Made by a program: the position numbers and the translations under genes. Below, piece after piece: positions 31,327-41,311 of a stretch of DNA of 64,000 nt. The stretch spans positions 2,790,001-2,854,000 of the forward strand of contig JALBUN010000001.1 of assembly GCA_025174535.1 (NCBI GenBank), read 5' to 3'. The DNA comes from Cantharellus purpuraceus. Taxonomy: Eukaryota > Basidiomycota > Agaricomycetes > Cantharellales > Hydnaceae. Position 1 is the stretch's first letter. The number at the start of each line of letters is the position of its first letter. A model generated the notes under the pieces. The model searched no databases and was not told the origin of the DNA. It worked only from the letters and a program-made list of their open reading frames with translations.

Positions 31327-31913
31327 AATGGAATGCTGCATACATTAATTATAATTATATACTATAGTAAGTAAGTACCTTGGGTACTTAGACACTTGTT
31401 CAGAAATAAAATATGTATATACAACCCATTTCCTCAAATTTAACATAATATACTTATATTCAAACATATTTTGATATTTCATACATGATTCTCAAAAATA
31501 ATTCTTTTTTTTTCATTTACCAGTGGCAACTGCTTCAAGGGAATATTCTACTCCTGCTACACTTAATTTCTTTCACTCATTCTTTCTTGTACTAATTGGT
31601 CAAATAATCTAATGTAACTTGAATCCTCACCTGGTATTTGTATATCTAAATATTCTCTATTATACCCATAATATTAATATATACATTACTGTTATATTCA
31701 TATAAATAATTATGTTCATCCATCTTATCTTTTAAAGTTTATTAAAATATGAAATATATATTTATATTTATAAAAATTTAAGATATCCAAATTGTAACTC
31801 CCTATTTTTATGATCATTATTAAAATTCTGATGTATATCTCATATATTCTGATGTACATCTCATATACATCAGAATATTGTATAACAGCATCATTCTGAA
31901 CAAGCATCTTACA
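31327..31913 (-). repeat. G2 3' LTR (minus strand), truncated by G1d
   Basis: On the minus strand it starts TGTAAGATGCTTGTTCAG at 31913, right after a purine tract, and runs through very AT-rich DNA to CAGCATTCCATT at 31327, where G1d interrupts it. Comparison with 35020-35183 and 50404-50688 suggests that the full LTR went on to ACTAAGACACCCATTAACA, for roughly 850 bp in all. Confidence 0.65.
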
Positions 31914-31926
31914 CCCTCCCCTTTTT
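31914..31926 (-). promoter_or_regulatory. Polypurine tract of the minus-strand G2 element
   Basis: AAAAAGGGGAGGG (minus strand) abuts the TGTAAGATG LTR start, as expected for the plus-strand primer of an LTR element. It fixes the orientation of the element. Confidence 0.7.
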
Positions 31927-33540
31927 GAATGAGGCATGATCTCATTCAGTACTTTTTTAATCATACAGCTCCTTATGAAGCTGCTCTGATGAGTCGGTGT
32001 CCATATGATTGTCTTGATCATATGGCTCTGGAGGGGGATGGCTCTCAGTCATCCCCAACATGGTTGCAGTATCCTCATCCACTTGAATGGATGAGGAGGA
32101 TGCAATTGCTACCACAGCATCCTGATCAAGTTCACAATTAAGTTGATCATGACCTAAATGCTCAGCAAGAGAGAGTTTAGCAGCTTTATGAGCTGCTTGG
32201 GAGACTCCTTGAGTCTCCTGCTTTCACTTACCAACCCTAGTGGGCTGGTTAAAAGCTGCTCCAGAGGCGATGCATTTAACAAACTCCTCTAATATAGCAG
32301 CACAATTGGGGGTGATGCCTCCCGATCACCCAAGCCAGAGCACAAGCTCTAGTTCAGTATGTTCTTTGGGGGTGTGATTCCCCCAATCATAAGCTCCAGT
32401 GATTGAAGCACAAAAGATGTCACCACTAGTTGGTGAGAACTTTTGGCCACTGGTCAATAATTCCCAGTGGCCAGGATCTGGAACATAGTCCAGAGGTTCT
32501 TCTTAAACACAGAGGAACCCTTCTTAGGAGTGGCCTTTTGCAGCCACATCCATATGTCCACATCAGACAAGTTCATAGTACCATCCGACTCCTGTCAGAT
32601 GGCTGGGGGGACCCCATTAGGGTTTACTTGCCACCCCTGTATGAGGGCAAGTGTGTCTACTGGTGTGGTTGGTAGAGTGACAATAAGACTCACATTATCA
32701 GTGTGAGCCAGCAGAGTCATTCTCTTGATGACTCTATGGATTGGTACCACCCGTTCTGTGAACGGTGTGGCCAATGCCTTTTTATGAAGTGATACAAACT
32801 CCAGAGTGTCTGTATTGCAGATGTCGAACTAGTCTGCCCTGATAGGGGTGGACTTGCCCAGAGGTCATGGCAGGTGGCTGGTGACTGATCTGGGGGGGTC
32901 AGCTGCAGCCATGAACCATGGTGCCCATTTGGGGAATGATTTCCCCACATTGGCATCCTTGAGAGCATGCCCAAAATCGTCCCAGCATTTGCGATAATTC
33001 ACATGCTGGGCTTCTTCCAGCGTCTTCAATGCTGGATCTTTCAAGGTATGGCTGGTGTCACCAGCCCTGTATTCCTTTCAAAGCTGATCAATCTCAGCTT
33101 CAATTTCAGATAGGGCAAACTCTTTGAGTTTGCCCAGTTGCTTAGCACCCTTGGGGATGCTAGCCAGGAGGAGACCACAATCATGGTTGTATCCCTCCTA
33201 GATTGGGTTGGTGTCATCCCAATTTTGACCCTCAAACCCTCGAGGGTCAACCTGAGGCAATTTGCTCAGGAGATCATCCTCTTTGGTGAGATTGATCATT
33301 TCCCATGACAATGAAGCCATGGGTTGTGATGGAATAATGGCAGGCAATGATTTGCCTGCCGTAGCACACAATAGCAATGCTACTGGGGCCAAGCGCACTG
33401 TTGTGAGCTTGGTTTTGAATGTAGGAGGTGCTCTATCAGCAGCCTCCTTCAGTGTTTTTAACTCATCTCTGAGACAAGTTACTTTGGACTTCTCATTGAT
33501 GACATTTTGATGGAGGGGGGGTTGTGGTGGTTTGAAGAAG
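31927..33540 (-). pseudogene. G2 extra ORF between chromodomain and 3' LTR, relic
   Basis: Translating the minus strand from about 33400 leftward gives a mostly continuous chain with scattered stops. It contains VDPRGFEGQNWDDTNP, then a helical part (GKLKEFALSEIEAEIDQL), KCWDDFGHALKDANVGKSF, KWAPWFMAAADPP, a part around RVVPIHRVIKRMTLLAH and QGWQVNPNGVPPAI, and an acidic C-terminal remnant near the LTR. I recognise no family. It lies between the chromodomain (33943) and the polypurine tract, so it is an extra gene or a pol extension of this family. Every part of it carries the short hairpins. Confidence 0.55.
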
Positions 33541-33942
33541 CACCACTAGCCTTTTATGGCTGAGCTCAAAAATTCTTTATTGAGAATTTTTCCAGTGACT
33601 ATGTCACATGGGTGTAATGCAATTAATCATCGCTTACCCCTTTTGTGCTACCATGAGTAGCACAATGGTGAACTGCTCCCTATGGGAGCAGTTTTTACTG
33701 CTATCGAGCTGCCTGTTGTTATGGCAGTTCTATCCTCATCTAGGAACTACCATTAATTGAGGTTGTTCCTCCACCTCTCATTGAGCTACCATCATTGATG
33801 GTAGCTCCTCATTGTGTCCTGCTAGGAGATACCTTTATTCTTGGTAGCTCCACTTCTCCCCCTTAAGCCCCATTAGATCTTTGGGGCTCCATCTCTCTGA
33901 GAACTACCATCTATGAGGTAGTTCTCATGCTCAAGTCACTCC

Positions 33943-40244: not shown

Positions 40245-40920
40245 TGTTGTGATCCTGGTTAGACGAATGGGTGCATTTCAGAGGGCTGAGAGGAGAAAGG
40301 AGAAGGATAAAGGGGAAAGGGGCATACAGGAGACCCAGAGGAGTTAGGGACGAGGTGAGTGATTGGATAAGGAGGGGAGGAGATAGGGGAGAGGGTATAG
40401 GAGTTGAGGGCAAGATTATGGATGCTTTTTCTCTTTATTTCATTTTCTATTCACCCTCCCATGGACACTATAGTTAGAACTACCCCAGTCTTGAAAAATT
40501 CCGTCATCTATTCTCCCTTCACCCCTGCAACCCAGAACCTTTACTATGGACTCCTGACATGCTTATAGTGTATAAAACGAGACTAGCTAGCTATGCAATG
40601 GACCAGATCTTTTATCTCCAAGTTTGTCTTGATAACTTGTCATTTCCGGAAGCGACTTCACTGTTCTCCTCATAACTATTCAAAGACTTTATCAATTCTT
40701 CTAAACTCAATCACATCCGCTTCTGCCCATTCATACCTACCCATTGGTACCATCCGCAAGGCTGTACGACACCTGTACGACATTACAAGCATGCATATAT
40801 TTTCCCCTGTCATAAGCACTGGCACTCCTGGCTCCTGTCACTTCCTTTGCTTCCAACCCAACCGACCTCTATTTGACTTCGGACTTAGCAAGGCAGTATA
40901 TATGGAATATATTTATAACA
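40245..40920 (+). mobile_element. Solo LTR, family L6 (676 bp)
   Basis: TGTTGTGATCCTGG...ATATTTATAACA, flanked by ATTAC on both sides (40240-40244 and 40921-40925). TATAAAA at 40571-40577 is a likely TATA box. Removing it rejoins the G2 RT thumb to RNase H. It is the only copy in the window. Confidence 0.92.
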
Positions 40921-40925
40921 ATTAC

Positions 40926-41311
40926 TGACGGCTCCAAGACTGGAGTTGGAGCCATCTATGGGCAAGGAAAAGATTGGCAGACCTGTTGGCCTGCTGGATT
41001 CCTATCCAAGAAATTTAGTGCTGCACAACAGCACTATAAGACTCATGAGCACGAGACTATAGCGGTGCTTGAAGCCCTAATGAGATGGGAAGATAAGCCA
41101 CTAGGATGAAAGTTCGTCCTAGTAACCAACCACAAGGGTCTTGAATACTTTGAGACCCAAAATAACCTGTCTCCTAGACAGATTAGGTGGTCAGAGTTCT
41201 TATCCCATTTCAACTTTACTACCCTGCATATAGACAGGGTAGAGAACAAAGTAGCAGATTGTCTATCATGCTACTATACTGATGACTCCCCAACAGAGAG
41301 TCATCCCGGAG
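40926..41311 (+). pseudogene. G2 RNase H
   Basis: DGSKTGVGAIYGQGKD begins just after the L6 LTR. QHYKTHEHETIAVLEAL and TNHKGLEYFETQ follow, then RQIRWSEFLSHFNF. A TGA at about 41107 and another stop near 41268 interrupt it. At 41311 the sequence switches to copia element Co2 in the other orientation, so integrase is missing from this copy. Confidence 0.82.

What the first reader, a model, noticed from the sequence alone, without database searches (positions are those of the whole stretch)
31327..41311. A gypsy family whose whole sequence is saturated with short, unrelated hairpins
Seen directly: in the G2 parts (31327-36466, 37619-40244, 40926-41311) local inverted repeats follow each other every 25-40 bases, on both strands and in coding and non-coding parts. 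At least 13 have stems of 9 bp or more with loops of at most 8 (for example 33113-33135, 33225-33250, 33339-33360, 33568-33591, 33643-33665, 33671-33693, 33783-33807, 33899-33926, 35199-35220, 35359-35379, 38488-38511, 38964-38983). For about 9 kb of random DNA with even base composition, my rough expectation is well below one. The stems have different sequences, so this is not a dispersed MITE. The pattern is absent from inserted LTRs and from G1, G3, Co1 and Co2. Some stems coincide with changed residues (Ser for the usual Gly beside the LGTPF motif). Two readings: repeated fold-back template switching by the element's RT has converted near-palindromes into perfect ones, or the RNA is selected to be structured, for example for packaging or to resist or feed small-RNA silencing. 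I know of no described element like this.
Basis: partly seen in the sequence, partly recalled or inferred. Interest (0 to 1): 0.92.

Follow-up and report, generated by a model that had tools for sequence, protein, structure and literature searches.

The report
Fungal retrotransposon family saturated with hairpins
A family of virus-like jumping elements in what is probably a fungal genome is filled along its length with short perfect palindromes, and in some copies the loop of a palindrome has flipped over, which suggests a copying step that folds back and copies its own strand; the papers searched showed no other element like it.

Summary
The G2 parts (8,152 bp) hold 28 perfect inverted repeats with stem >=9 and loop <=8, against about 0.35 in dinucleotide shuffles; the rest of the window has a small excess at most. 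G2 is a decayed Ty3/gypsy family, probably a chromovirus. The 20 copies fetched have 9.9-14.4 hairpins per kb in their aligned parts, and 13 of 14 more diverged fragments 7.1-15.2. Five loci of related elements (30-44% aa) are near their shuffles, 24 against 19.2. Stems share no common sequence, gaps are spread as at random, coding and other parts are equally dense, and loops thin out beyond 11-14 nt. Folding excess is the same on both strands (z -3.24 and -3.19; paired p 0.49 in a repeat), which speaks against selection for structured sense RNA. New: at four hairpins, eight copy-observations carry the exact reverse complement of the usual loop between intact arms.

The parts
31908..33945 (-). 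3' part of the G2 family downstream of the chromodomain-like piece; no Pfam match in the two pieces tested; hairpin-dense; about 390 bp present in many copies are missing from the window at 33498
   Evidence: 22 hairpins 7/12
33946..35010 (-). integrase, Tf2-1-like SH3 and chromodomain-like part of G2 (sense strand is minus), hairpin-dense
   Evidence: SH3_Tf2-1 2.1e-8; Chromo 0.006 and rve 0.045, both below their cut-offs; tblastn with L029; (9 hairpins 7/12)
35014..35180 (+). LTR-like piece of G2; the same piece lies beyond the 3' end of the element in several copies (e.g. L019, L020)
35181..36466 (+). 5' untranslated/gag part of G2, hairpin-dense
   Evidence: 14 hairpins 7/12
36467..37618 (.). 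inserted sequence that interrupts G2; no clear hairpin excess
   Evidence: 2 vs 0.79; similar sequence in other loci
37619..40244 (+). CCHC gag end, protease and reverse transcriptase part of G2, hairpin-dense; holds a tandem duplication 39219-39560 / 39562-39901
   Evidence: 34 hairpins 7/12
40245..40925 (.). second inserted sequence, no hairpin excess
   Evidence: 0 vs 0.55
40926..41311 (+). RNase H part of G2, hairpin-dense; G2 ends here
   Evidence: RT_RNaseH 4.1e-6; (6 hairpins 7/12)
33113..33135 (.). hairpin, stem 10, loop TTT; loop is AAA in L014, L024, L027 and L028
   Evidence: without L027, whose row had been dropped as too diverged
34515..34533 (.). hairpin, stem 7-8, loop TTC; loop is GAA in L010, L020 and the older copy L033
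34918..34943 (.). hairpin, stem 11, loop AGTA; loop is TACT in L033
39037..39061 (.). hairpin, stem up to 11, loop AGA; loop is TCT in L015
41016..41036 (.). hairpin, stem 8, loop CACAA; loop is CTGTG in L028 (reverse complement apart from a transition), a weaker case
39758..39835 (.). 78-bp stretch, holding two palindromes at its ends and the RT YLDD motif, that lies inverted in copy L030
   Evidence: opposite-strand match 39758-39835 to L030 3963-3886; YLDD frame

Best explanation
G2 is a Ty3/gypsy LTR retrotransposon family, probably a chromovirus, in a genome that is probably a basidiomycete's. Its sequence was turned into a mosaic of short perfect palindromes by frequent fold-back template switching during copying. 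In this model the growing strand pairs with itself over a short chance inverted repeat, copies its own upstream stretch for about 8-12 nt, and switches back. This perfects and extends near-palindromes and sometimes inverts the loop. Shown: the hairpin saturation, its occurrence in the copies sampled, its absence from five related loci, the loop inversions, strand symmetry, random placement and the thinning out of loops beyond 11-14 nt. Inferred: that the same switching made the hairpins, that the element's own reverse transcription did it (only this family is affected), and that it happened in the active lineage before the present copies inserted.
For: Loop inversions: a scan of 166,974 copy-centres for segments equal to the reverse complement of the usual sequence (5 nt or more, at least 2 transversions) gave 11 observations at 7 centres. 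Eight are at four hairpins: 33124 in L014, L024, L028; 34524 in L010, L020, L033; 34930.5 in L033; 39049 in L015 (15-25 nt; the 34524 hairpin has stem 7-8, so the script counted it as 'other'). The other three are a 5-nt match (37824, L034) and a 16-nt match inside the stretch inverted in L030, mapped to both units of the tandem duplication. Of 7 positions with no-gap clusters of 3 transversions among the first copies, 4 are loop inversions (one of them, 41025, with a transition besides), 2 lie at an alignment edge or deletion (33494, 33834), and 1 (33891) is unexplained. The copies that share AAA share no other private column, and those that share GAA one further transition column (33663), among the 18 rows compared, so the flips recur or reassort. 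Hairpins per kb: 9.9-14.4 in 20 of 20 copies (aligned parts of >=150 bp and >=80% identity, overlaps counted twice). Related loci: 24 against 19.2 in shuffles, over 23.8 kb. Stem 8-mers: shared by at most 2 of 95 arms. Gap CV 1.06. Loop lengths: background beyond about 14 in a scan up to 120. Density 13.2 per kb in coding and 12.2 elsewhere; codon phases 16/22/14. Equal folding z on both strands. In PMC8794818 (passages) inverted loops are listed among the footprints of template switch mutation; the authors call a compensated change together with loop inversion the strongest possible support and found such cases extremely rare.
Against: No inverted-duplication insertion: the four insertions of 7 nt or more inside alignments (all in L026) have no long reverse-complement match beside them. 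No hairpin gain by a one-arm change was noticed among the 52 no-gap clusters, but gains were not tested systematically. Fragments about 20% diverged have as many hairpins, so the origin is older than anything sampled. Transversions in stems of four diverged copies are unpaired except one T-A to A-T pair in L023b, and clear cases of arm-to-arm conversion are lacking. CpG steps in the two arms decayed independently, 185 paired to 185 unpaired states. Loop flips may be a consequence of hairpins rather than their cause, and host polymerases could make them; outside G2 only four hairpins could be compared, with no flip. The related families also use reverse transcriptases but are not affected.
Confidence: 0.55

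Rival explanations
1. The hairpins are selected as RNA structure of the element's transcript (packaging, stability, resistance to or supply of small-RNA silencing), like genome-wide ordered RNA structure of some RNA viruses (recalled).
For: Strong folding excess, mean z about -3.2 in 61 windows of 120 nt. Loops A+T-rich, 66% against 55% in spacers. Hairpins at the same centres in diverged copies. Fewer shared, pre-insertion transversions in stems than elsewhere (16 of 3,201 stem sites against 76 of 8,154, summed), though choosing hairpins present in the main copies gives such a deficit by itself. Palindrome-rich LTR regions of maize Sireviruses are small-RNA mapping hotspots (PMC5311732, passages), and hairpins in maize LTR elements draw more small RNAs (PMC10760457, passages).
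Against: z is the same on both strands, whereas rRNA shows a difference (-0.49 against 0.03, p 0.005). Raw folding energy is even a little lower on the antisense strand in G2 (-35.95 against -38.19, p 0.015), as in L029. Interior mismatches are 5 GT to 6 AC of 20. GT at stem ends is at chance, but rRNA shows no excess there either, so that test is weak. 21 of 118 hairpins have loops of 0-2. Private changes are as frequent in stems as outside (tv 23/2799 against 53/6825, p 0.80).
Confidence: 0.2
2. The palindromes act at the DNA or cDNA level and are selected there (single-stranded cDNA folding, cruciforms, or a role in a homology- or small-RNA-based silencing contest).
For: Strand symmetry, palindromes down to loop 0, persistence over diverged copies.
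Against: Stem sequences unrelated, spacing random, no sign of constraint in private changes.
Confidence: 0.13
3. The hairpins arose by some unknown past event and are only inherited; loop flips are ordinary changes at hairpins made by host replication.
For: Hairpins are present in all age classes sampled; flips act on existing hairpins; no gain noticed.
Against: Stems share no common sequence and lie within protease, RT, RNase H and integrase coding parts at the same density as elsewhere, so they are not a set of alike inserts.
Confidence: 0.09
4. Chance, assembly artefact or composition bias.
For: None found.
Against: About 80-fold excess of long stems over dinucleotide shuffles in G2; same density in 20 of 20 copies at other places of the genome.
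Confidence: 0.01

Closest known systems
Coding palindromes in mitochondrial genes of Nematomorpha (PMC6649704; abstract, Discussion and passages read)
   Same: Many perfect inverted repeats inside conserved coding sequence, scattered; the authors also discuss template switching and repeat conversion.
   Different: Mitochondrial genes, arms of 15-142 bp, mean distance 37 bp, phase 3 repeats declining with length; here a nuclear retrotransposon, arms 7-15 bp, loops up to about 11-14, no clear phase depletion, and inverted loops seen among copies.
Palindrome-rich LTR regions of maize Sireviruses (passages in PMC5311732; the original paper, Bousios et al. 2016, is not held: only its title was seen)
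   Same: An LTR retrotransposon with many palindromes.
   Different: [quoted passage not shown] here through gag, pol and the 3' part of a Ty3/gypsy element.
Template switch mutations creating RNA hairpins (PMC8794818; passages read)
   Same: Perfect stems and inverted loops as footprints of switch events.
   Different: There scattered events in RNA genes; here one element family saturated along its length.
Ty3/gypsy elements; Ty3 RNA genome (PMC11381356; abstract start and passages read)
   Same: Domain content; Ty3 RNA has six short palindromes near its 5' end, one needed for dimerisation.
   Different: Those palindromes are 6 nt; no hairpin saturation is mentioned in the passages read.
Conserved Hairpin Site of fungal GalEa Copia elements (PMC5445492; passages read)
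   Same: A hairpin in a fungal LTR retrotransposon.
   Different: One conserved hairpin after the 5' LTR.
Survey of perfect inverted repeats in 118,019 genomes (PMC13155455; passages read)
   Same: Same kind of object (arm>=10, spacer up to 8).
   Different: Eukaryote mean 1.91 bp per kb against 31-36 in the G2 window copy; their highest genome value, 180, is a partitivirus.
Small inversions at hairpins of chloroplast DNA (recalled, not looked up)
   Same: Loop of a hairpin inverted between relatives.
   Different: Single non-coding hairpins.

Membership tests
Ty3/gypsy LTR retrotransposon | CCHC gag, aspartic protease, RT-RNase H, then integrase | tested here: met
   zf-CCHC 1.4e-5, RVP_2 1.6e-4, RT_RNaseH 4.1e-6; RT and IN aligned to L029 (no Pfam search of the RT piece); order RT-RNase H-IN read from L019
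Ty3/gypsy chromovirus | chromodomain at the end of integrase | tested here: inconclusive
   Chromo 16.9 bits, cut-off 25.1, in the decayed window copy; aligned to the L029 end part
LTR retrotransposon | direct long terminal repeats at both ends | tested here: inconclusive
   35014-35180 piece also beyond the 3' end in several copies; no full LTR pair delimited
Template-switch-mutated sequence | loop replaced by its reverse complement with stem intact | tested here: met
   four hairpins, 8 copy-observations
Template-switch-mutated sequence | one arm rewritten from the other, or a new stem in one event | tested here: inconclusive
   none clearly seen; CpG-type decay masks most variation
RNA-structured genome | stronger fold on the sense than on the antisense strand | tested here: not met
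   control
RNA-structured genome | compensated changes with G.U steps | tested here: inconclusive
   no GU excess, but variation is mostly CpG-type decay
Dispersed palindromic element or MITE | same palindrome sequence at many places | tested here: not met
   at most 2 of 95 arms share an 8-mer

The most novel reading that the evidence does not exclude
A retrotransposon lineage whose copying step folds back so often that its whole genome, coding parts included, has evolved into a chain of perfect palindromes that are kept perfect, and have their loops flipped, by self-templated copying: palindromes as a by-product of the copying enzyme rather than a function.
Probability: 0.45. Interest if true: 0.9.

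Novelty: new variant of a known kind. Interest (0 to 1): 0.8.

Why it matters
Fold-back template switching is usually inferred from rare, scattered events. A family with dozens of hairpins per copy, dozens of copies in one genome and visible loop flips would allow a rate, a size limit and a sequence rule to be measured, and would show how far coding sequence can be bent towards palindromes. It also bears on how perfect hairpins arise at all, an open question for RNA genes.

Tried and rejected
RNA-level selection was tested by strand-specific folding, interior mismatches, stem-end mismatches and codon phase. The GU test at stem ends proved weak, because rRNA shows no excess there either. The raw tally of stem mismatches among copies (GU 542, AC 690) reflects decay and base composition and is not used as proof. 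The lower divergence of stems in diverged copies looked like constraint, but hairpins were chosen as present in the sampled copies, which alone lowers it; for changes private to one copy the difference vanishes. Apparent compensated transitions (74 paired, 55 unpaired double transitions) are largely CpG steps that decayed in opposite ways in the two arms; counted as steps, paired and unpaired states are equal. DNA of relatives outside the genome: none in IMG/VR or prokaryote genomes; proteins exist (best 120 of 237 listed). Literature: ten searches (two returned nothing), titles and abstract starts seen, plus passages of seven papers; none described an element saturated with hairpins through its coding parts, the nearest being the Sirevirus LTRs. 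Many subscription papers are not in that library. Rows dropped before counts: one search kept alignments of 150 bp or more; searches kept 87 of 104 rows as main copies, dropping 17 more diverged or short-LTR rows (listed), among them the L027 row that carries AAA at 33123.
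Full report
What was checked. A scan for perfect inverted repeats over the whole window and dinucleotide shuffles by region confirm the finding. The three G2 parts, 8,152 bp in all, hold 89 repeats with stem >=7 and loop <=12 (shuffles about 7) and 28 with stem >=9 and loop <=8 (shuffles about 0.35). The two inserted sequences are near chance and the flanks have a small excess. By arm >=10 and spacer <=8, G2 carries 31-36 bp of inverted repeat per kb and the rest of the window 0.8-0.9; a survey of 118,019 genomes gives a eukaryote mean of 1.91 (PMC13155455, passages read).

What the element is. G2 is a broken Ty3/gypsy element, probably a chromovirus. The CCHC gag end, protease, RT and RNase H lie on the plus strand within 37619-41311. 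Integrase, a Tf2-1-like SH3 domain and a weak chromodomain match lie on the minus strand at 33946-35010, with about 2 kb more down to 31908. The two halves meet at 35010/35014 in opposite orientation, so sense is minus to the left and plus to the right. The genome that holds the window has 40.15 Mb in 50 contigs. A 1-kb probe gave 79 scored matches (40 of 176 first-look candidates scored, many copies matching in two pieces). Protein probes gave 151 and 156 matches, which include fragments and, at lower identity, other gypsy families. Protein relatives are found in jgi and ena data and in Ramaria rubella and Gautieria morchelliformis, so the host is probably a basidiomycete near the Gomphales (inference).

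The hairpins belong to the family. Twenty copies were fetched at 10 kb each. Over their aligned G2 parts, copies have 815 hairpins where the window has 714 (247 against 277 for stem >=9, loop <=8). All 20 have 9.9-14.4 per kb in aligned parts of 80% identity or more. Of 14 more diverged fragments, 13 have 7.1-15.2 per kb (stem >=7, loop <=11) and one 156-bp piece has none. In the loci of 7 kb or more fetched by then, windows of G2 homology have 7.7 hairpins (stem >=8, loop <=11) per kb and other windows 1.16. By my reading, 8 of the 13 dense windows outside lie in the roughly 390-bp and 640-bp parts of the family that the window lacks. Five loci of related elements in the same genome (L029, L042-L045; 30-44% aa identity in the searches) have 24 hairpins 7/12 in 23.8 kb against a summed shuffle mean of 19.2, each within its shuffle range.

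Anatomy of the hairpins. Pooled over copies there are 118 hairpins with stem 7-15 (scan limited to loops of at most 11). In the window copy, with loops up to 120 allowed, counts are high for loops 0-11, thin out at 12-15 and are at background beyond. Gaps between hairpins vary as for random placement (CV 1.06). No 8-mer occurs in more than 2 of 95 arms, and several of those shared come from the tandem duplication. Density is 13.2 per kb in coding and 12.2 elsewhere, and the codon phase that pairs third positions with each other, the most restrictive one for protein, is not clearly depleted (14 of 52). This looks like a random process acting on any sequence rather than a set of alike sites.

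Decay. Copies differ mostly by CpG-type transitions. In one 1.1-kb region with 16 rows, variants found in 4 or more rows are 125 transitions to 4 transversions, singletons 141 to 78; CpG observed/expected is 0.16-0.21 in G2 against 0.36-0.39 in the flanks. CpG steps in the two arms of a stem decayed independently (185 paired to 185 unpaired states), and changes private to one copy are as frequent in stems as outside. So after insertion the hairpins are not maintained.

Loop inversions. Some copies carry the exact reverse complement of the usual loop between unchanged arms: TTT/AAA at 33123-33125, TTC/GAA at 34523-34525, AGTA/TACT at 34929-34932 and AGA/TCT at 39048-39050, with two weaker cases at 33057-33059 and 41024-41028. 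Each strict case needs 2-3 transversions at once where transversions are rare. A scan of 166,974 copy-centres gave 11 observations: 8 at these four hairpins, one 5-nt match elsewhere (37824, L034) and two records of one 16-nt match inside the 78-bp stretch that is inverted in L030 and holds the RT YLDD motif. Among the 18 rows compared, the copies that share AAA share no other private column, and those that share GAA (two main copies and the older L033) share one further transition. The flips therefore recur or reassort among templates. PMC8794818 (passages read) lists inverted loops among the footprints of template switch mutation, 69 such clusters in its data, and regards a compensated change together with loop inversion as the strongest possible support.

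RNA or DNA. If the transcript were selected to fold, the sense strand should fold better than the antisense strand. In 61 windows of 120 nt the mean z is -3.24 sense and -3.19 antisense; a repeat gave -3.39 and -3.26, paired p 0.49. Raw energy is slightly lower on the antisense strand (p 0.015), as in L029, whose z is -0.18 and -0.29. E. coli rRNA as control has z -0.49 and 0.03, p 0.005. Interior mismatches show no G.U preference (5 GT to 6 AC), though numbers are small. Loops of 0-2, which an RNA hairpin cannot use fully, make up 21 of 118. Whatever made the hairpins treats both strands alike.

Mechanism. The best-supported model is repeated short fold-back template switching, which perfects chance inverted repeats, extends them to a size limit and flips loops. 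Because only this family is affected, the step is most likely reverse transcription of the element; a limit of roughly 30 nt in total span would suit a short free end of nascent cDNA (inference; the RT-RNase H hybrid length of about 18 bp is recalled). Not shown: the birth of a hairpin, conversion of one arm by the other, and the agent. The most diverged fragments already have full density, so the key transition lies outside the copies sampled. Selection at RNA or DNA level remains possible.

Verdict. The feature is real, found in all 20 copies sampled and in none of the related families compared. Ten literature searches and passages of seven papers showed no retrotransposon with hairpins throughout its coding parts. 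The nearest are the coding palindromes of nematomorph mitochondria (PMC6649704) and the palindrome-rich LTR regions of maize Sireviruses (seen through PMC5311732).

Noticed in passing
window 39219-39560 and 39562-39901: 341-343-bp tandem duplication within the RT part of the window copy; the two units are 92% alike, while in copies where both window units align (e.g. L013, L015, L019) they fall on one and the same unit, so the duplication may be about as old as the insertion or have joined two different templates.
   Followed up: partly
L030 3886-3963 (window 39758-39835): 78-bp inversion with a palindrome at each end, across the RT YLDD motif.
   Followed up: partly
window 33640-33930: Some neighbouring hairpins just beyond the chromodomain have similar arms (CTACC/GGTAG); L019 lacks 43 bp between two of them, so a local hairpin cluster may have spread by duplication.
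   Followed up: partly
window 31908-33545, minus strand: About 1.6 kb downstream of the integrase end with open pieces; two pieces tested gave no Pfam match; possibly an extra reading frame.
   Followed up: no
window 33498: Many copies carry about 390 bp more at this point, which the window copy lacks.
   Followed up: no
window 31908-40244: CpG is at 0.16-0.21 of expectation in G2 against 0.36-0.39 in the flanks, with TG and CA in its place, suggesting methylation-linked decay of this family.
   Followed up: partly
window 1012-1650: 24-bp tandem array of 26.6 copies; a 19-bp perfect inverted repeat (1636-1654, stem 9, loop 1) lies at its end.
   Followed up: no
window 41266-42080, minus strand: Copia-like reverse transcriptase/RNase H open pieces beginning where G2 is cut off (motifs recognised from memory, no family search run).
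   Followed up: no
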